NCBI GenBank assembly: GCA_018242725.1
Contig: JAFEBI010000011.1
Span: 124,001-188,000, forward strand
Reading direction: 5' to 3'
DNA: 64,000 bases
Source of the DNA: Nitrospira sp.
GTDB taxonomy: Bacteria; Nitrospirota; Nitrospiria; Nitrospirales; Nitrospiraceae
Shown here: one piece after another, positions 24,981 through 35,938 of the stretch
Numbering within the stretch: the stretch's first letter is position 1
Layout of the letters: every line of letters starts with the position of its first letter
The notes under the pieces: generated by a model
Told to the model about the DNA's origin: nothing
Database searches by the model: none
Seen by the model: the letters and a program-made list of their open reading frames with translations, nothing else
Program-made: the position numbers and the translations under genes

Positions 24981-25075
24981 GGCCCACGATGCTAGCACAG
25001 TCCTTTGTCTTGCGGCCATGTGGGGCTGCGCGTAGAATCGCTCCGTACGCTTCTATTCTAACCAATGGAGGCATC

Positions 25076-26188
25076 ATGCTTGCGACGAGGATTACACAAA
25101 AAGAAGGAACGTTTTATTTCATTGCCTACAAGGCCGGCGATCTGTTGGAAAAGGTTCGCTTCACGAGCCGGTACTATTTTGAAGGCGAGGAGATTGCGCA
25201 GACGAAAATCGCCGAACACGATGAGGTCGCGCAATTCATTACGGGGATCGAGCGAAGCGAAAAGGGTTTCCAGCGGGTCTTAAACCGACAGAAGATCAAA
25301 CAGATCGTCAATTTCTATGAAACCGTCGTGGCGCAACCGATGATTCCCGGTACGGTATTGCTTTTTACCGATGAAACGCTCCGCTTCCAAAAAACAGAGG
25401 GCTCGGAATCGATCGGACATCTCAGCGAACCCAAGGGAAAGTATCTGGTCATCGACGGACAGCATCGTCTTGCCGGGCTACACTTCTTCCATGAGAAACA
25501 TCCGGACCAGAGCCTGCAAGTGGAAGTTCCTTGCCTTCTGTTCGATGGGCGGAGCGCCGACTTTGCGACGGAGATGTTCGTCATCATCAACTCGACCCAC
25601 ACGCGCATCAATCGGTCTCATTTGGTCGATCTCTATGAGAAGGTGTCCTGGGAAAGTCCTGAAAAGAAGTTCACGGCCAAAGTCGTCAACCTGCTCTACA
25701 GCGAGTCTGACTCGCCGCTTCAGTACAAGATCAATCGTCTTGGAGGACGGAGCAAACAGGAGAAATGGATTTTGCAGTCCGAGGTGTTCAACGAGCTATT
25801 AAAACTTGTGACGGTCCACAAACGATGGATCGAATCGCACCTGGACATGAAGGCCGATCGTTGCTATGCATTGGTGCGGGACTATCTCAAAGGCGTCAAG
25901 GATGTGATGGGTGAGATCTGGGGACAGAATGATCGCTATATGTTCACGCGCGATGTTTCTCTCAAGGCGTTGATCCGAGTGTTGGACGATCTGGTTGTGG
26001 ATCGTCAACTCATCAGCGCCTGGGAGGAGCAGCGCTCACATCACCCGTTCGCTGAGCTCGTGAAGCCGTGGGCGACGCTCACCAAGGAGTTCCGGGCCGA
26101 CGGCTTTTATGAGCGGTTCCCTGCGAAAGGCCAGCTTGAACGGGTTCGCAAGATTCATCAGCGGCTGCTGGATGCAATTGTGGGGTAA
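25076..26188 (+). CDS. DGQHR domain protein (DndB-like fold)
   Basis: A 370-residue protein with the signature YLVIDGQHRLAGL (about 125-137) and FVIINSTHTRINRSHLVDLY, matching the ParB-like DGQHR/DndB superfamily. In Dnd systems DndB regulates or limits DNA phosphorothioation; the biochemical role of stand-alone members is unknown. No dndCDE or other modification or restriction genes are nearby. The start is the ATG giving MLATRITQKEG, preceded by GGAGG at a correct distance; the frame extends far upstream without similarity. It is followed 16 bp later by a START-like gene and then thiE, all read in the same direction. Confidence 0.85.
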   Translation: MLATRITQKEGTFYFIAYKAGDLLEKVRFTSRYYFEGEEIAQTKIAEHDEVAQFITGIERSEKGFQRVLNRQKIKQIVNFYETVVAQPMIPGTVLLFTDETLRFQKTEGSESIGHLSEPKGKYLVIDGQHRLAGLHFFHEKHPDQSLQVEVPCLLFDGRSADFATEMFVIINSTHTRINRSHLVDLYEKVSWESPEKKFTAKVVNLLYSESDSPLQYKINRLGGRSKQEKWILQSEVFNELLKLVTVHKRWIESHLDMKADRCYALVRDYLKGVKDVMGEIWGQNDRYMFTRDVSLKALIRVLDDLVVDRQLISAWEEQRSHHPFAELVKPWATLTKEFRADGFYERFPAKGQLERVRKIHQRLLDAIVG

Positions 26189-28256: not shown

Positions 28257-29000
28257 CTACAGATGTCGGCTGTCGCAATTCCAGACTTGTCCTGACACAT
28301 CTTTAAGCTGAGCCAGTCGGACTATGGTTCCAGTCACTTCCTCGATAGCTGGGGATCGACGTAGGGCATGGTCCGGCCATTCGCTTCCTTCCGGGAAGAT
28401 GCCTTCGGTCAAGTCAGTCTTCTGCCACCCAGGCAGGAGGAGATTCACTCGGATGTTCTGTGGTCCCCATTCAAGGGCAGCCGTCTTGACCAGCCCAATC
28501 AGTCCCGCTTTCGAGGTGGCATACGCGCTCTGTCCCTTCGCCCCGTGGAATCCGGTGTGGGACCCGATCACGATGATGGAGCCTCCGCCGCGAGTAAGCA
28601 AGTGAGGTGTCATCGCGCGTAGGCAGTGAAAGGTTCCAGTCAGATTGGTGGCGATGACGTTGTCCCAGATTTCATCTGAATGGCGGACCAGTAAGTCACT
28701 CTGTCCGATCCCCGCATTGCAGATCATCACCAATGGACCGGATGTGCAGCTGGAAAATCGATCGACCATGCGTCGAACTGGTGTTGCTTCGCGAACATCC
28801 GCCTGGTAGAGATCGCCGGTTCCTCCGGCGTTGATCACCTGTTCTAACGTTGCCGTTGCTGCCGATTCGTTCTGAGCATAATGGACCCCCACGTACCATC
28901 CAATCGCTCCAAAGGCCAAGCTGATCGCACGACCAATTCCGCCGGATGCGCCGGTGATCAGCACGGCTGGTCTCGGACCAATTGAGGATTGCATGGACAC
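28257..29000 (-). CDS. Short-chain dehydrogenase, FabG-like
   Basis: A 247-residue SDR. The cofactor motif TGASGGIGRAI (about 16-26), NAG in ICNAGIG, and the catalytic Ser-Tyr-Lys set in SHTGFHGAKGQSAYATSK are present, with the C-terminal GQVWNCDSRHL matching the substrate-loop end of 3-oxoacyl-ACP reductases. It is probably an NADP-linked ketoreductase; the precise substrate is unknown. It lies upstream of bioD, with the hairpin element between. In some bacteria a FabG paralogue is encoded with biotin genes, so a role in pimelate or acyl-ACP supply is possible. Confidence 0.85.
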   Translation of the reverse strand: MSMQSSIGPRPAVLITGASGGIGRAISLAFGAIGWYVGVHYAQNESAATATLEQVINAGGTGDLYQADVREATPVRRMVDRFSSCTSGPLVMICNAGIGQSDLLVRHSDEIWDNVIATNLTGTFHCLRAMTPHLLTRGGGSIIVIGSHTGFHGAKGQSAYATSKAGLIGLVKTAALEWGPQNIRVNLLLPGWQKTDLTEGIFPEGSEWPDHALRRSPAIEEVTGTIVRLAQLKDVSGQVWNCDSRHL

Positions 29001-29216: not shown

Positions 29217-30527
29217 ATGAGTGACATCTTCATCAGTTACGCCAGCGAAGACAGGAGCTGCGCAAAGTCCCTGGCTCATGCCTTGGAGCGAAAGGGCTGG
29301 TCCATCTGGTGGGATCGGCGGATTCCAATCGGGCGCTCATACGACGAGGTGATTGAAGAGGCCTTGGACGGTTCGAAAGCGGTGGTGGTCGTCTGGACTC
29401 AGACCTCGGTGAAATCGCAATGGGTGAAGAATGAAGCGCGGAAGGGGATGCGACGAGGTGTGTTGTTCCCCGTGATGCCGCTGGAAGAGGTGAAGATCCC
29501 GCTGGAGTTCGAGCATTTGCAGGCCGCGCATCTGATGGATTGGCAGCCGGAGCAGGATCACGCCGGTTTCGACCAATTTATCGATGATTTGGCCCACAAG
29601 ATCGGTGCCCCCGTTTCTGCTGAGGCTCAGCCAAAACAAATCATCGGCAAAGACGGCGCGTCGATGGTGCTGATTCCTGCGGGAAGTTTTTTGATGGGCA
29701 GCACGAAAGACGAGGTGGATCGGGCAATCCAGGACGGTGTTAAGGAGATGGGACTGGATCAACAGAGGTCCGAGGTCCGGATTAAACCAGAATTCCCGCA
29801 GCACAAAGCCCACATCGATGCGTTCTATCTGGACAAGTACGAGGTGACCAACCAGCTTTTCCATGAGTTTGTTCAGCAAACCGGATATCGAACGACGGCT
29901 GAGCGGGAAGGCAGTGCATGGTGCTTTGTTGAGGGAAAGCGCTGGAAGGAAGTGAAAGGGGCGAGTTGGCTGAAGCCTGAGGCTGGTGCGACGGTCTTTG
30001 ACTCTAACCGCGCGAAGCATCCTGTGGTGTGTGTCTCCTGGGACGATGCGCAGGCCTATTGTCAGTGGGCGGGGAAGCGGCTTCCCACGGAGGCGGAGTT
30101 CGAATATGCCTTGCGAGCTGGGAGCACGACGAAATACTGGTGGGGGGACAGGAATCCCGGGTTGCGCCGCGTTGAGAATATCGCCGATGAATCTGGGAAG
30201 CATCTTTTCAATACGATCATGAAGGACTATAACGACGGTGCAGTACGAACAGCGCCTGTTGGGAGCTATGAGGCCAATCCCTGGGGCCTGCATGATATGG
30301 GCGGGAACGTAAGCGAGTGGACGTCGGATTGGTATGACAAGACCTATTATGGCAAGAGCCCTGAGCGAAATCCCAAGGGGCCTTCGAGCGGTGAGTATAG
30401 GATGATTCGCGGTGGGTCCTGGAGCCGTGGACCGATCGACGTGCGGTCCGCATTCCGGATCTGGGTCACTCCCTCCACTCGGAGCGGCAGGGTTGGGTTC
30501 CGTTGCGCCCAGGACATTCCGAAATAA
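29217..30527 (+). CDS. TIR domain fused to SUMF1/FGE-like domain
   Basis: A 436-residue protein with two parts. The N-terminal TIR domain (1-135) starts SDIFISYASEDRSCA and includes WSIWWDRRIPIGRSY and SQWVKNEARKG, where the Glu corresponds to the NADase residue of active TIR enzymes. The C-terminal part (about 150-436) is a SUMF1/formylglycine-generating-enzyme-like domain with FLMGST, DKYEVTNQLF, AGKRLPTEAEFEYALR, DMGGNVSEWTSDWY and RGGSWSRG. The copper-binding Cys pair needed by true FGE is not there (GGSWSRGPIDVRSAFR), so it is likely a binding module of C-type-lectin-like fold. Role unknown; defence or signalling is an inference. It is upstream of VapBC in an accessory stretch. The ATG chosen is 12 bp inside a TTG-started frame. 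Confidence 0.85.
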   Translation: MSDIFISYASEDRSCAKSLAHALERKGWSIWWDRRIPIGRSYDEVIEEALDGSKAVVVVWTQTSVKSQWVKNEARKGMRRGVLFPVMPLEEVKIPLEFEHLQAAHLMDWQPEQDHAGFDQFIDDLAHKIGAPVSAEAQPKQIIGKDGASMVLIPAGSFLMGSTKDEVDRAIQDGVKEMGLDQQRSEVRIKPEFPQHKAHIDAFYLDKYEVTNQLFHEFVQQTGYRTTAEREGSAWCFVEGKRWKEVKGASWLKPEAGATVFDSNRAKHPVVCVSWDDAQAYCQWAGKRLPTEAEFEYALRAGSTTKYWWGDRNPGLRRVENIADESGKHLFNTIMKDYNDGAVRTAPVGSYEANPWGLHDMGGNVSEWTSDWYDKTYYGKSPERNPKGPSSGEYRMIRGGSWSRGPIDVRSAFRIWVTPSTRSGRVGFRCAQDIPK

Positions 30528-30600
30528 CCTTTACCCTTTGACCCTATTTCCTTTTCTCCGGGCGTTTCGTCCGCCCTGAGCTCGTCGAAGGGTGTGAGGT

Positions 30601-30635
30601 CCCGTTCGTGGTTCGACTAACTCACCACGAACGGG
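30601..30635 (+). terminator. Rho-independent terminator after the TIR-SUMF1 gene
   Basis: A 12-bp perfect stem (CCCGTTCGTGGT, 30601-30612, with 30624-30635) and an 11-nt loop are followed by TTTCTTT. It lies about 75 bp after the stop. The preceding CCTGAGCTCGTCGAAGG resembles half of a dispersed REP-type motif. Confidence 0.75.
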
Positions 30636-30928
30636 TTTCTTTGGTACAGTAAGTGCCGGATAACGTCATGCCATAGGCGTGTTCCATGAGCTTCCGGGTC
30701 TACATCCTTTGCTGTTCGTAAGGGGTCGGATACCTTTCTAAATATTCCTGTGAGGTCAGATTTCGAACTGTGCATGACAGTGGGTGTCCTTCCTGAATCT
30801 CAGATTGGTTTTGGTCTATCATCGTTCGCCAGAGCATCCTGATAGATGCGGCCAGCGCCAGCGTCTTTTCAATACGTTGCCCCTTTATCAAGCGAGCCTT
30901 ACAGTCGGTGTCTGCGGCTGGTAATCCA
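30636..30928. other. Non-coding stretch between TIR-SUMF1 and vapBC
   Basis: About 290 bp without a supported gene. A short plus-strand frame at 30686 encodes MSFRVYILCCS and then stops; this matches the start of GIY-YIG proteins and may be a decayed stub. The minus-strand 79-codon frame here has no family resemblance. The region seems to be a junction of an accessory island. Confidence 0.4.
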
Positions 30929-30994: not shown

Positions 30995-31249
30995 ATGGCT
31001 CTGAATATTAGAAATTCGGAAACAGAACGGCTGGCGCAGGCCATCGTGGCGCTGACCGGAGAAACAAAGACCGAGGCCGTGACGACGGCGTTGAAGGAAC
31101 GTCTTGAACATCTGAAACGACGGCGCAGGCGGAAGCGGCTGGCTGATGAGCTGGATGAGATCGCGCGGCATTGCGCCTCTCTGCCTTTGCGCGATAGGCG
31201 TACCGACGACGAAATTATCGGTTACGATGAGAACGGGATGCCCGCGTGA
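30995..31249 (+). CDS. VapB-type antitoxin
   Basis: An 84-residue protein in the Rv0623-like VapB family: ALNIRNSETERLAQAIVALTGETKTEAV is the DNA-binding N-terminus, a Lys/Arg-rich helix (KRRRRRKRLADEL) follows, and the acidic C-terminus (DDEIIGYDENGMP) would wrap the toxin. The stop overlaps the vapC GTG (GTGA), which couples the two genes. Together with its toxin it should repress its own promoter. Confidence 0.9.
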   Translation: MALNIRNSETERLAQAIVALTGETKTEAVTTALKERLEHLKRRRRRKRLADELDEIARHCASLPLRDRRTDDEIIGYDENGMPA

Positions 31250-31647
31250 TTGTGATTGATACGTCCGCAGTGGTGGCGATTTTGCGTGATGAGGCGGAGC
31301 GGCGGACGTTCAATGAGGCTATTGAAGAAGCCAAACGGTGTCTGGTGTCGGCCGTCAGTTTCGTCGAAGCTTCCATGGTGATGGAAGGCAGAATGGGATA
31401 TGACGGATTGAGGGATTTCGATTTGTTTATCCTGAAAGCGGGAATAGAGATCGTGCCGGTGGATGTCGAGCAGGCGAGCATTGCGCGGGGAGCGTTTAGA
31501 AAATTCGGTAAAGGTCGGCATGCGGCGAATTTGAACTTCGGGGACTGCTTCTCCTACGCATTGGCAAAGGTCATGGATGCGGCCCTGTTATTCAAAGGCC
31601 ATGATTTCTCACGGACAGATATTGAGTCAGCGGTGAAAGGACAATAA
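31246..31647 (+). CDS. VapC-type PIN ribonuclease toxin
   Basis: A 133-residue PIN domain with the four acidic residues expected for Mg-dependent RNA cleavage: Asp5 in VIDTSAVVAIL, Glu in SFVEASMVME (about residue 42), Asp in NFGDCFSYALA (about 101) and Asp in FKGHDFSRTDIE (about 119). The GTG start overlaps the vapB stop. VapC toxins typically cleave tRNA or rRNA loops; this target cannot be told. No truncation is seen, so the module looks functional. Confidence 0.9.
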   Translation: MIVIDTSAVVAILRDEAERRTFNEAIEEAKRCLVSAVSFVEASMVMEGRMGYDGLRDFDLFILKAGIEIVPVDVEQASIARGAFRKFGKGRHAANLNFGDCFSYALAKVMDAALLFKGHDFSRTDIESAVKGQ

Positions 31648-32022
31648 ACATCCTGAGTCCGGTGAAAGTAGGAGAATGGTTACCGAGAGCCATGGTTTCC
31701 TTGCCGCCAGTGCGTAGCCGGTCTTCGAGTCTGGGGAAGAACCTGCTCCTCTCCGATGCCCACTGCATCTGGTGTTTGTTCTCGAAACGTTTGTTTGGTT
31801 ACTGGATTGATCGTCGACTCCACGAACGCCATAATGACCCACCGGGTTTCTGCTGCTTTTCATCTGTCACAGATCTGTTCAAGTAGGGTGGAAGGTTATG
31901 TGGCGAGCTGTCGCATTGTCCGTTCCATTGCCCCTGATCGGCTTGCCGCTGTTGTGATGCCTATGGTACCGTGAAAAATCACGCGTCTGCAGTGAAGTGA
32001 AATGGTTAAACCTGGAGTGACT
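31648..32022. other. Gap after vapC, no supported gene
   Basis: About 370 bp. I see no RNA gene, terminator with a T run, or protein-like frame here; the frames present are short and without RBS. The last 20 bp hold the RBS of the next gene (GGAG). Confidence 0.4.
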
Positions 32023-32796
32023 ATGCGATCGGTCTTGAGTGTGGGGATTTGTTTACTGCTGAGCCTCTCGTTCTGGTCTGGGCTGTGTGGGGCGGACGAG
32101 TCCTTCACGATTACCAAGTCTGAGGAGTATTTCCCTGATACGCTGGGCAGTCGGTGGACCTATCGTGGTCAGATCAACGAGGGGCCGCTTCAAACTATTG
32201 AACTGAAGTTTTTTGAGAATGTCTCGACGGTTTCGGGAACCAAGACCCTCAATGGGGTGGCCGTGACCGTGTTTCACGACACGAATCCCGGCAATCATGG
32301 AGAGTCGGATAGTTTTTATCGTCGGGATATGGTCGGCATCGTCTATTATGGATCTGAGCCTGGCACGCCGCTGGAAAAACAGATCACGCCTTATCAGATT
32401 TTCCGGTTTCCCCTCAAAGTCCCGTCGTCGTTTCAACAATTCGATCGAAAGGGGCTCGATTTTGGGAGCGACATGGATCGCGACGGAACGGACGAAACGG
32501 TGGATGCGCAGGGGTGGAGCAAGGTGATCGGTCGAGAAACCATCACGGTGCTGGCCGGAACGTTCCAGGATGCGGTTAAAGTTGAAGCGCGCATGAACAT
32601 GCATATTCACCTGTCCGGCAGTAAATACACCGTCTCAGGTATCGATGTGATGACGGCGTGGTTTGCCAAAGGGGTCGGCCTCGTGAAATATACGGAGCGT
32701 CAAGAATTGTCCGCCATAAAAGAAGACCGTGGTGTTGTGACGGAGATCACGGAAGAGCTGGAAGAGTACGAGATAAAATCTGCCAAGGCTCACTGA
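32023..32796 (+). CDS. Exported protein of unknown function
   Basis: A 257-residue protein. The ATG giving MRSVLSVGICLLLSLSF is preceded by GGAG and opens a signal peptide cleaved near CGA-DES. The mature part starts with EEYFPDTLGSRWTYRG, a motif seen in many small secreted beta-rich proteins of unknown role, and has FGSDMDRDGTDETVD, which resembles a calcium-binding DxDxDG loop. The middle (VIGRETITVLAGTFQDAVKVEARM) recalls DUF3108-like beta sandwiches. It ends seven bases inside the stop of putA, read convergently. No close function can be assigned. Confidence 0.75.
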   Translation: MRSVLSVGICLLLSLSFWSGLCGADESFTITKSEEYFPDTLGSRWTYRGQINEGPLQTIELKFFENVSTVSGTKTLNGVAVTVFHDTNPGNHGESDSFYRRDMVGIVYYGSEPGTPLEKQITPYQIFRFPLKVPSSFQQFDRKGLDFGSDMDRDGTDETVDAQGWSKVIGRETITVLAGTFQDAVKVEARMNMHIHLSGSKYTVSGIDVMTAWFAKGVGLVKYTERQELSAIKEDRGVVTEITEELEEYEIKSAKAH

Positions 32797-35732
32797 GGCG
32801 ACTCGAATCCTCGACGGAGAGTATTTTCACTCGTGATGCGGGTGATCATGAATTGGGCCAGGTAGTCTTCCCCGCCGGCCTTCGCTCCTACGCCTGAGAA
32901 ACGGTGCCCGCCGAAGGGTTGCCGAGAGACGAGCGCCCCGGTAATCGGACGGTTCACATAGAGGTTCCCTACATCATACTGTTCACGGGCCATCGCGAGA
33001 TTGGCGGGGCTGCGTGAGTAGATCCCGCCGGTCAGGGCGTATCGTGTCCCATTGGCCATCTCCAGCGCCTCCACCATGGTCGTCGCGTTCATGACCACCA
33101 GCACTGGACCGAAGATTTCCTCCTGCGCCAACCGATCGTTCGGCCTGACGTCGGCAAAGACGGTCGGGCCCACGAACAACCCTGATCCCTCCGTAGTGCG
33201 GCGAACGATCACCCGGTGAGTCGCCATGCCGATGGTGATGAATTTCTCGATACGCCGCTTTGCCCGGTCATCGATCACGGGACCGACTTGCGTGCCGGGA
33301 TCGCACGGGTCGCCCAGCGTGAGACTCATCACGGCATCACGTAGTCGCGCAAGGAACTGGTCGTAGATGCCGTCCAACACGATGGCGCGGGAACAAGCGG
33401 AACACTTCTGGCCTGTGTAGCTCGTGAAGGAGGCAACCACGCCGGCGATGGCTTCGTCGAGGTCTGCCGTGTCGTCGACGATGATGGCGTTTTTCCCGCC
33501 CATCTCCGCGATCACCCGACGCACCATGGTTTGATCCGGCTGGACCATCGCGGCATCAGCCCATAAATTCAGTCCCACATCTTTCGATCCTGTAAAGGCG
33601 ATGGTGGCGATCTCCGGCCGTTCGGACAAGGCCCGTCCGATCTCAGGGCCTCCGGGGAGGCCATACAGGACATCGTCCGGCACGCCAGCTTCATGGAACA
33701 GGTCCGTCAACAGAGTTCCCAACAGGGAGGCGCGCTCGGAGGGTTTGAACAGGACCGCGTTGCCGGTCACCAGGGCCGCACTGATCATACCGGCTGGAAT
33801 CGCCAACGGAAAGTTCCAGGGTGCGATCACCGCGGCTACGCCACGGGGACGATACCACCGCTGATTCAATTCTCCCGGATAATGCCCGAGTCGCAGTGGC
33901 TCACCGAGACGCGCCATTTGCTGCGCGTAGAACTCCAAGAAGTCGATGGCCTCCGCCATGTCGGCGTCGGCTTCTCGCCAGGGCTTTCCGACTTCGAAGA
34001 TTTCCCAAGCAGCCAGGTCATATCGACGCTCGCGCATAAGCGCAGCGGTGCGTCGCATTACCGCAATTCGTTCCGCTGCGGGCCGTCGCGCCCAAGCCGC
34101 GCCAGCCGCCGCCGCAGGACCAATCGCGGCAGCCACGTCGGCCGGCGAAGCCGACTGAACAGTTGCGATGAGTTCGTTCGGCCGCGTGGGATTGCGCGAC
34201 ATGATCAGGGAACCGGTCAGCCGCTTCCGGCGAACTCTGATAGGCCAGGTTCGCCCCAGATTGGTTCGCACCCGGTCGATCGCAGTCTGCATCGCCGTAC
34301 GGACTTCCTGTCGGGAAAAGTCGCTGTGTGGCTCATTGAAAAACGAATCGAGCTCTCCGGATGGCGGCAAGGTGGAAACGGGGACAACCGGCGGAGCGAG
34401 GAGGGTTGCCAACGACTGCGACTCTACATATTCTTTCCGCAGAAACGATTCGTTCGACGTATTTTCCAACAGGCGCCGGACCAAATAGGCCATCCCCGGC
34501 AACAGCCGGCCGACCGGTGCATAGAGTCGCACCCGTCGGCCATGCGTCACCATCGCATGCTGAAACGGTTCAGCCATCCCGTAAATCATCTGATACTCGA
34601 CCGTCTCCGGACTGCATCGACGTGCGTCCGACACCGCTTCGATGACAGCCAACGTCCGCAGATTATGTGTGCCGAACGCCGGACGGATGACCTGACGGTG
34701 ATCCAGGAGCAAAGGCACGAGCGCTTCATAGTTCGCGTCGGTTTCTGCCTTGTGCTCGAACAGCGGGACCGGCCACCCAGCTTGGCGATAGCGCACCGTG
34801 TCCGAATCCCAATAGGCCCCCTTCACCAGTCGAATTGTGATCGGACAATTCCGTCGTTCCGTCCAGGTGATGAGGGATCGAATGTCCTGATCGGTTTCCC
34901 GATGATAGGCTTGCAGCGCCATGCCGGCGTGAGGAAATGTCCGAAACGCCGGTTCGGTGAAGAGCTTTCGGAATATCTGGATCAGCAAGGTTTTCGTCTC
35001 TGCCTGTTCCATGTCGAAGATCAATCCACATTCGAGGGCAGCCGCCCGTTCCACGATCGGATGTAATCGGTCTGCCACGGCCCGATAGGTACCGAGGGGA
35101 TCGATTGGGTCCAACCGTGATGTCAACGCGGAGATCTTCAGAGAGAGTTGTGCTCGTGGCAGCGAGCCAAGATGATCCCGCTCCAACATGGTCGACGACG
35201 GCCATGTGCGAACGCTCTGCCCGAGCTGCGTCAAGGCGTCGAGGCATCGATCCCGATACCGATCTGCTTCGACGTCGCTGATCGTGGCCTCACCGAGCAG
35301 ATCCACCGACCATGCACGACCGTTTTTCCAGAGATTCGCCAGGACGGGGAGCGCTTCTTCCACCGAGCCTCCGGCGATGAAGGTTCGCGCCATCTGCTCG
35401 ACTTGATGGCGAATGGATTTCCCTGTGATGGCGGCTCCAACAGTGGTCGCCGCCAACGCCTTGAACCCCCATTGCAGCCCAAATATCTGACCATGGAGCG
35501 CTCCAAAGTATTCTTCCGCCAAGCGTACCACCGCCTGATCCGAGGCCACGGCAGGCAGCACATCGATAAATCGGAACAGCTGAACTTTGAACGCAGGATC
35601 TTTCATCGCCAAGTTGATCACGCTTTGTGACCACCAGTGACTGTCAAACACGGTCGGGGTGCGGCCGGCCGACAATTGGGCCAGACGCTGTCCGATTTGG
35701 AACACCGCTGTTTCGAGCACCGACGGATTCAT
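32790..35732 (-). CDS. putA: Bifunctional proline dehydrogenase / P5C dehydrogenase
   Basis: A 980-residue PutA that oxidises proline to glutamate. The N-terminal FAD-linked proline dehydrogenase barrel (about 60-440) shows LKISALTSRLDP, IRLVKGAYWD and FGTHNLRTLAVIEA. The C-terminal aldehyde dehydrogenase (about 490-975) has WNFPLAIPAGM, TGSKDVG, Glu in EMGGKNAIIVDD, and catalytic Cys in TGQKCSACSRA. The DNA-binding ribbon-helix-helix domain of enteric PutA and the C-terminal extension of long types are absent, so this is the short, purely catalytic form. The ATG giving MNPSVLETAVF is preferred over one 153 bp earlier. Electrons go to the membrane quinone pool through FAD. Confidence 0.95.
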   Translation of the reverse strand: MNPSVLETAVFQIGQRLAQLSAGRTPTVFDSHWWSQSVINLAMKDPAFKVQLFRFIDVLPAVASDQAVVRLAEEYFGALHGQIFGLQWGFKALAATTVGAAITGKSIRHQVEQMARTFIAGGSVEEALPVLANLWKNGRAWSVDLLGEATISDVEADRYRDRCLDALTQLGQSVRTWPSSTMLERDHLGSLPRAQLSLKISALTSRLDPIDPLGTYRAVADRLHPIVERAAALECGLIFDMEQAETKTLLIQIFRKLFTEPAFRTFPHAGMALQAYHRETDQDIRSLITWTERRNCPITIRLVKGAYWDSDTVRYRQAGWPVPLFEHKAETDANYEALVPLLLDHRQVIRPAFGTHNLRTLAVIEAVSDARRCSPETVEYQMIYGMAEPFQHAMVTHGRRVRLYAPVGRLLPGMAYLVRRLLENTSNESFLRKEYVESQSLATLLAPPVVPVSTLPPSGELDSFFNEPHSDFSRQEVRTAMQTAIDRVRTNLGRTWPIRVRRKRLTGSLIMSRNPTRPNELIATVQSASPADVAAAIGPAAAAGAAWARRPAAERIAVMRRTAALMRERRYDLAAWEIFEVGKPWREADADMAEAIDFLEFYAQQMARLGEPLRLGHYPGELNQRWYRPRGVAAVIAPWNFPLAIPAGMISAALVTGNAVLFKPSERASLLGTLLTDLFHEAGVPDDVLYGLPGGPEIGRALSERPEIATIAFTGSKDVGLNLWADAAMVQPDQTMVRRVIAEMGGKNAIIVDDTADLDEAIAGVVASFTSYTGQKCSACSRAIVLDGIYDQFLARLRDAVMSLTLGDPCDPGTQVGPVIDDRAKRRIEKFITIGMATHRVIVRRTTEGSGLFVGPTVFADVRPNDRLAQEEIFGPVLVVMNATTMVEALEMANGTRYALTGGIYSRSPANLAMAREQYDVGNLYVNRPITGALVSRQPFGGHRFSGVGAKAGGEDYLAQFMITRITSENTLRRGFESPQ

Positions 35733-35938
35733 CGTCACATCTCTTTCCGGAAGGTCATCCTGGCTTCCATGGTCAGTATACTCCCAGCCACCGCCGAGCC
35801 AAGCATCCGGGAGTCGATCATGCGCACCTACCGGTTGAAAACGGGAACCGGTTTCGCTAGAGTGCAATTCCTGCAACACGTTCACCGGAGCCGGTTTGCC
35901 ATGGTGGACCTCAGCTTGTGTTATCAGCGAGAGGACGC

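What the first reader, a model, noticed from the sequence alone, without database searches (positions are those of the whole stretch)
29217..30527. TIR domain joined to a SUMF1-type domain lacking catalytic Cys
A likely TIR NADase (Glu in WVKNEARKG) is fused to a formylglycine-enzyme-like domain that has lost the copper-binding Cys, so the second half may bind a ligand and trigger TIR activity. It sits next to VapBC in a region that looks accessory. This could be a stand-alone immune or stress sensor.
Basis: partly seen in the sequence, partly recalled or inferred. Interest (0 to 1): 0.6.

Follow-up and report, generated by a model that had tools for sequence, protein, structure and literature searches.

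The report
Orphaned variable immune-type receptor in Nitrospira
A Nitrospira gene joins a cell-killing-type TIR enzyme to a lectin-like domain whose binding face carries the fingerprint of a bacterial hypermutation machine that has since been lost from this locus, so it is probably a frozen member of a swap-and-mutate receptor family.

Summary
The fusion is real: a 436-aa protein with TIR_2 (residues 4-120, putative catalytic Glu73) and an FGE-sulfatase/C-type-lectin-fold domain (148-431) lacking both copper Cys. That stretch (residues ~398-433) is a diversity-generating-retroelement (DGR) variable region (VR). Sister Nitrospira carry the whole machine: TIR-TM-FGE, caspase-FGE or trypsin-FGE target, Avd, reverse transcriptase (RT), template repeat (TR). 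In one, VR and TR differ at 12/33 adenines and 0/75 other bases. The window's VR differs from that TR at 22/33 adenines versus 7/75 other bases; the rest of the domain shows no adenine bias. The window gene sits in a site empty in 14 of 22 genomes examined; four others hold TIR-FGE, TIR-fragment or caspase-FGE modules. In one, Avd-RT-TR lies where the window has VapBC; in another, a truncated avd precedes nearly the same VapBC. No cognate RT, Avd or TR was found in the window's genome. Best reading: an orphan, frozen-specificity sensor-effector, soluble because it lacks the transmembrane helix of most relatives. NADase activity and phage defence are inferred. New variant of a known kind (DGR-diversified FGS conflict receptors), but NTPase-free and effector-swapping.

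The parts
29217..30527 (+). TIR-FGE fusion gene, 436 aa, no TM helix or signal peptide
   Evidence: full-length 75% relative in G050; dN/dS 0.139
29226..29576 (+). TIR_2 domain (residues 4-120); putative catalytic Glu73 at 29433-29435
29658..30509 (+). FGE-sulfatase / C-type-lectin-fold domain (residues 148-431) without the copper Cys pair
30408..30515 (+). DGR-type variable region (RGGSWSRGPIDVRSAFRIWVTPSTRSGRVGFRCAQD) in place of the FGE active-site loop
   Evidence: adenine-specific divergence from template repeats of sister genomes; no such bias in domain core; dN/dS 0.37 vs 0.135 in the core
30495..30561 (+). Conserved VR end and 3' flank (retrohoming-site-like), running into non-coding DNA
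   Evidence: 91% identity over 67 nt to the complete DGR of G114; similar flank after VRs in G018, G019, G050, G105
30599..30670 (+). Remnant of the spacer that precedes avd in G018 (78% over 72 nt up to the avd ATG); no Avd/RT/TR follows
30995..31249 (+). VapB-like antitoxin (PSK_trans_fac), in the position of the DGR cassette of G018
31246..31647 (+). VapC-like PIN toxin; same pair at 93-94% identity at this site in G019
28257..29000 (-). Left flank of the insertion hotspot (SDR family gene)
32002..35885 (.). Right flank of the insertion hotspot (DUF3108-like gene and PutA)

Best explanation
The gene encodes a one-component sensor-effector. The C-terminal FGE/C-type-lectin-fold domain is a binding domain whose loop was written by a DGR; binding of a foreign molecule is proposed to cluster the protein so that the N-terminal TIR consumes NAD+ and stops or kills the cell. 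It belongs to a Nitrospira receptor family in which a retroelement-diversified FGE domain is coupled, without an NTPase, to TIR, caspase or trypsin effectors, usually across or outside the membrane. At this locus the Avd-RT-TR cassette is gone and VapBC sits in its place, so the specificity is now fixed (orphan variable protein); the TM spacer is also missing, so sensing would be cytosolic. Shown: domains, VR fingerprint, intact DGRs in relatives, cassette remnants, hotspot, effector swapping, purifying selection. Inferred: NADase activity, ligand class, defence role, membrane topology of relatives, order of losses.
For: Domains and fold: (FGE 2q17 TMt 0.77; DGR variable protein TvpA 2y3c TMt 0.64). 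Intact DGRs with TIR-TM-FGE (G114) and trypsin-FGE (G105) targets, and a G018 cassette whose TR matches caspase-FGE and trypsin-FGE VRs: (bAvd PF22296, RVT_1 with IGNQTSQ motif). Same-genome VR/TR: G105 12/33 A vs 0/75 non-A; G018 trypsin-FGE on another contig 16/32 vs 1/76; G018 caspase-FGE 20/32 vs 3/76. Window vs G105 TR 22/33 vs 7/75 (p=2e-9), vs G037 TR-like repeat 21/31 vs 6/77 (p=5e-10). Control: core A and non-A sites diverge equally. Cassette loss; truncated avd in G019 next to 93-94% identical VapBC. Hotspot. Effector swapping. Selection. Literature: FGS lectin-fold sensors in conflict systems (PMC7159879, PMC8195603, PMC10907252).
Against: No RT, Avd or TR in this genome, so window VR-TR pairing is only against other species' TRs. 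Host assembly is draft (34 contigs, 96% complete); a DGR could be missed. No experiment shows any Nitrospira TIR-FGE acts on NAD+ or phage. Neighbours other than VapBC are not defence genes. The amino-acid excess in the VR against G050 alone is modest (hypergeometric p=0.013).
Confidence: 0.62

Rival explanations
1. Fixed sensor of an endogenous or stress ligand: after losing the retroelement the FGE loop was co-opted for one self or environmental signal and TIR activity serves stress control rather than phage defence.
For: No cassette now; whole protein under purifying selection; soluble form shared with G050, which has no DGR RT either.
Against: VR is still the fastest-changing part; patchy, hotspot-bound distribution is typical of defence genes.
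Confidence: 0.2
2. Still a live DGR target, diversified in trans by a cassette missing from the draft assembly.
For: VR end and 3' flank are intact; trans targets exist in G018; contigs tend to break at repeats.
Against: Own-genome searches find only a group II intron RT and no TR-like copy; avd truncated in the sister locus; window VR has 6-11 non-A differences from the four TRs tested.
Confidence: 0.08
3. Decaying leftover without function, like the frameshifted copy in G003.
For: Cassette lost; TM absent; G003 copy broken.
Against: Open frame; TIR dN/dS 0.10 and FGE core 0.135 against G050; TIR catalytic Glu kept.
Confidence: 0.08
4. FGE domain is a working oxidase that modifies a partner and regulates the TIR.
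For: Strong overall match to FGE.
Against: Copper Cys pair absent in the window protein and 13 aligned relatives; the site is the VR.
Confidence: 0.02

Closest known systems
FGS (FGE-fold) lectin sensors in NTP-dependent conflict systems (Kaur 2020 PMC7159879; Kaur 2021 PMC8195603)
   Same: C-terminal FGE domain, often DGR-written, joined to N-terminal effectors such as TIR, caspase, trypsin
   Different: Those are tied to STAND NTPases, vWA-MoxR ternary systems or EADs; the window protein has none
DGR-diversified putative antigen sensors of Thiohalocapsa PB-PSB1 and others (Dore 2024 PMC10907252)
   Same: DGR-written C-type-lectin-fold domain in a putative defence receptor; remote (trans) targets
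   Different: Mostly NTPase or MoxR linked; here the effector joins the sensor directly and the cassette is lost
Cyanobacterial DGR variable proteins with kinase, orthocaspase or TIR-like N-termini (Vallota-Eastman 2020 PMC7517822)
   Same: Effector/signalling domain grafted to a CLec domain; remote variable proteins
   Different: Other phylum; no Nitrospira hotspot, effector swapping or orphaning described in the text read
Treponema denticola TvpA (2y3c)
   Same: FGE/CLec fold variable protein; structural match
   Different: Surface lipoprotein without TIR
SpbK, a TIR NADase abortive-infection protein (PMC12847820)
   Same: Stand-alone TIR effector triggered by a phage protein (proposed here for the window protein)
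   Different: No FGE domain and no DGR
Metacaspase-FGE fusions (PMC3501461)
   Same: FGE joined to a caspase effector, reported in prokaryotes
   Different: Read there as possible enzyme fusions rather than variable sensors

Membership tests
DGR variable protein (target) | C-terminal VR on an FGE/CLec-fold domain | tested here: met
   VR motif at residues 398-433; fold match to TvpA and FGE
DGR variable protein (target) | VR differs from a TR mainly at TR adenines | tested here: met
   22/33 A vs 7/75 non-A against G105 TR; 21/31 vs 6/77 against the G037 repeat; core shows no bias. TRs are from other species
DGR variable protein (target) | Cognate RT, Avd and TR in the same genome | tested here: not met
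   Only a group II intron RT in G000; no TR copy; nothing in the window. Called an orphan target, not an active DGR
Bacterial TIR NADase | TIR fold with conserved catalytic Glu | tested here: met
Bacterial TIR NADase | NAD+ cleavage | not testable with these tools
   needs an assay
Formylglycine-generating enzyme | Copper-binding Cys pair | tested here: not met
STAND/ternary FGS conflict system | NTPase, vWA, MoxR or VMAP component in the protein or next to it | tested here: not met
   No such domain in the protein or the eight neighbouring genes scanned (only marginal sub-cut-off P-loop hits in BioD); nSTAND1 is present in the second Nitrospira DGR type, TIR-nSTAND1-FGE
Thoeris ThsB | ThsB_TIR above curated cut-off and a ThsA partner | tested here: not met
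   19 bits vs cut-off 21.2; no ThsA-like gene among the neighbours scanned
Defence island gene | Neighbouring defence genes | tested here: inconclusive
   Only VapBC; other neighbours are conserved housekeeping genes, but the site is a variable hotspot
VapBC toxin-antitoxin | Rv0623-like antitoxin overlapping a PIN toxin | tested here: met

The most novel reading that the evidence does not exclude
Nitrospira carry an NTPase-free family of hypermutable receptors, many with Toll-like-receptor-like layout (cytoplasmic TIR, one TM helix, outside lectin-fold domain), in which one retroelement feeds several targets in trans and the effector (TIR, caspase, trypsin) is swapped freely. The window gene is a member that lost both retroelement and membrane anchor and was kept as a germline-like fixed receptor.
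Probability: 0.45. Interest if true: 0.8.

Novelty: new variant of a known kind. Interest (0 to 1): 0.62.

Why it matters
If true it shows a bacterial receptor family passing from hypermutating to fixed specificity, akin to keeping one good antibody and discarding the mutator, and gives a compact two-domain protein in which the open question of what DGR lectin domains sense, and how sensing triggers a TIR, can be tested without NTPase partners. It also explains a misleading annotation: FGE-like domains lacking catalytic Cys at this loop may be binding faces, not dead enzymes.

Tried and rejected
FGE catalysis (Cys pair absent). Active DGR in cis in the window (no Avd/RT/TR relic beyond the spacer; the only own RT is a group II intron). 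Thoeris membership (below cut-off). Phage-borne origin: no match in viral contigs in one scan, which used narrow patterns. Plasmid hits are generic FGE genes. DndB/DpdB-like gene at 24998-26188 as a defence partner: a gene of the same size and start holds the same place beside QueG in G003 and G012, so probably core. Contigs C7 and C10 of G018 share no sequence overlap, so their adjacency rests on synteny and on the window's own spacer matching both ends.

Full report
Observation. The ORF at 29217-30527 is real and intact. Pfam finds TIR_2 at residues 4-120 and FGE-sulfatase at 148-431. Glu73 of WVKNE aligns with the Glu of the W..xE motif in solved bacterial TIR chains such as AbTIR and is invariant in ten aligned proteins. 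The copper Cys pair of FGE is missing. AlphaFold2 gives two mostly confident domains (mean pLDDT 83, pTM 0.66; weak at about 311-342 and in part of the VR), and Foldseek matches FGE (2q17, TMt 0.77) and the DGR variable protein TvpA (2y3c, TMt 0.64).

Relatives. The host is a Nitrospira (named relatives). FGE domains are ubiquitous in the order (99 of 99 genomes), but this TIR subfamily is patchy (E below 1e-70 in 12 of 79 Nitrospira genomes, 14 copies). The nearest FGE domains (66-74% identity) are joined to TIR (G050, G019), a caspase (G018), trypsin (G031, G105) or an unknown long N-terminus (G057). On a tree of 41 FGE domains TIR needs 7 changes for 8 tips, trypsin 8 for 8 and caspase 3 for 3, i.e. 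no clustering by effector. One supported clade (98/92) holds one TIR, one caspase and one trypsin protein.

Topology. By hydropathy most TIR-FGE relatives have one TM helix between TIR and FGE, and caspase- and trypsin-FGE proteins mostly begin with a signal-peptide-like segment. The window protein and its G050 relative have neither, so both domains should be cytosolic. TM prediction was a simple hydropathy scan; orientation is inferred.

The variable region. G114 carries a complete DGR on one contig: TIR-TM-FGE, Avd (bAvd PF22296), RT with the IGNQTSQ motif, and a template repeat coding RGGSWNNEPDNVRSANRNRNTPTKRNDNIGFRCAQD. G105 has the same with a trypsin-FGE target. Within G105, VR and TR differ at 12 of 33 adenines and 0 of 75 other bases; in G018 a trypsin-FGE VR on a different contig differs at 16/32 and 1/76, and the caspase-FGE at 20/32 and 3/76. 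The window's VR differs from the G105 TR at 22/33 adenines and 7/75 other bases (p=2e-9), and from a TR-like repeat in G037 at 21/31 and 6/77 (p=5e-10). As control, in the rest of the domain adenines and other bases diverge equally (0.23-0.32 each), whereas in the VR adenines of G019 and G105 diverge 0.78-0.84 and other bases 0.19-0.21. The dN/dS against G050 is 0.135 in the FGE core and 0.37 in the VR. The VR lies exactly where FGE has its catalytic Cys, which explains their absence.

The locus. Of 22 genomes examined at the SDR / DUF3108-PutA junction, 14 are empty, 5 occupied (window, G003, G012, G018, G019), one has an unexplained gap (G032) and two are cut by contig ends. In G018 the site holds caspase-FGE, and the contig carrying the right flank begins with Avd-RT-TR. 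In G019 a TIR-TM-FGE is followed by the first ~44 codons of avd, then VapBC 93-94% identical to the window's. In the window the VR end and 3' flank (30495-30561) are 91% identical to the complete DGR of G114, and the spacer aligns with G018 up to the avd start (30599-30670), after which no Avd, RT or TR is found. Genome-wide, only a group II intron RT and no second TR-like copy were found. I conclude the cassette was lost and VapBC took its place; the order of events is inferred, and a missing contig cannot be excluded.

Mechanism. Proposed: the VR face binds a foreign molecule, the protein clusters, the TIR consumes NAD+ and the cell arrests or dies. FGE-fold sensors in conflict systems were proposed before (PMC7159879, PMC8195603, PMC10907252), and stand-alone TIR NADases such as SpbK act in abortive infection (PMC12847820). 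No step of this was tested for the window protein.

Novelty. DGR-written CLec domains with TIR or caspase are known (PMC7517822, PMC10907252), and Nitrospira also has the known TIR-nSTAND1-FGE type with its own DGR. What I did not find described in the library searched is the NTPase-free Nitrospira family with effector swapping at a hotspot, transmembrane TIR-lectin layout, and cassette-less orphans. Direct TIR-FGE proteins also occur in other phyla.

Noticed in passing
L032 413-3519; L035 4854-7990; L042 8760-12106; also L137, L140, L141: Recurrent two-gene operon: TIR-TM-(~330 aa region without Pfam match)-TM protein followed by a secreted trypsin-FGE, often with further trypsin-FGE genes and a radical SAM gene nearby.
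   Followed up: partly
L208 4788-7550; L210 8681-11317; L213 90-2732: Second Nitrospira DGR lineage (RT 50-58% identical): TIR-containing FGE targets of 878-920 aa beside Avd and RT; the L208 one is TIR-nSTAND1-TM-FGE by Pfam.
   Followed up: partly
L029 7431-9899 (G000 contig C11): Second receptor in the same genome: TIR, two cadherin-like domains, TM, FGE with a diverged VR; its locus beside a radical SAM gene holds the TIR-FGE gene in G050, i.e. a second hotspot.
   Followed up: partly
L211 6818-9190 (G019): Single 790-aa frame joining an FGE piece to a DGR-type RT, possibly a deletion fusion.
   Followed up: no
L216 5366-6157 (G037): FGE coding frame ending in a template-repeat-like sequence with TR-type 3' flank but no RT nearby.
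   Followed up: no
L039 6348-8100 (G003): TIR-TM-FGE at the same hotspot as the window gene is frameshifted inside the FGE domain, with another PIN-like gene nearby.
   Followed up: no
window 24998-26188: DndB/DpdB-like (DGQHR) gene with no dnd/dpd partners in the stretch read; syntenic in relatives, so probably core.
   Followed up: partly
L036 5911-7248; L037 1241-2575; L038 102-1463: FGE domains of the same clade behind a conserved 133-aa N-terminus with TM helices and no Pfam match.
   Followed up: no
L277, L285, L288, L290: Tandem arrays of about 600-aa TIR proteins, without FGE, in Gammaproteobacteria.
   Followed up: no
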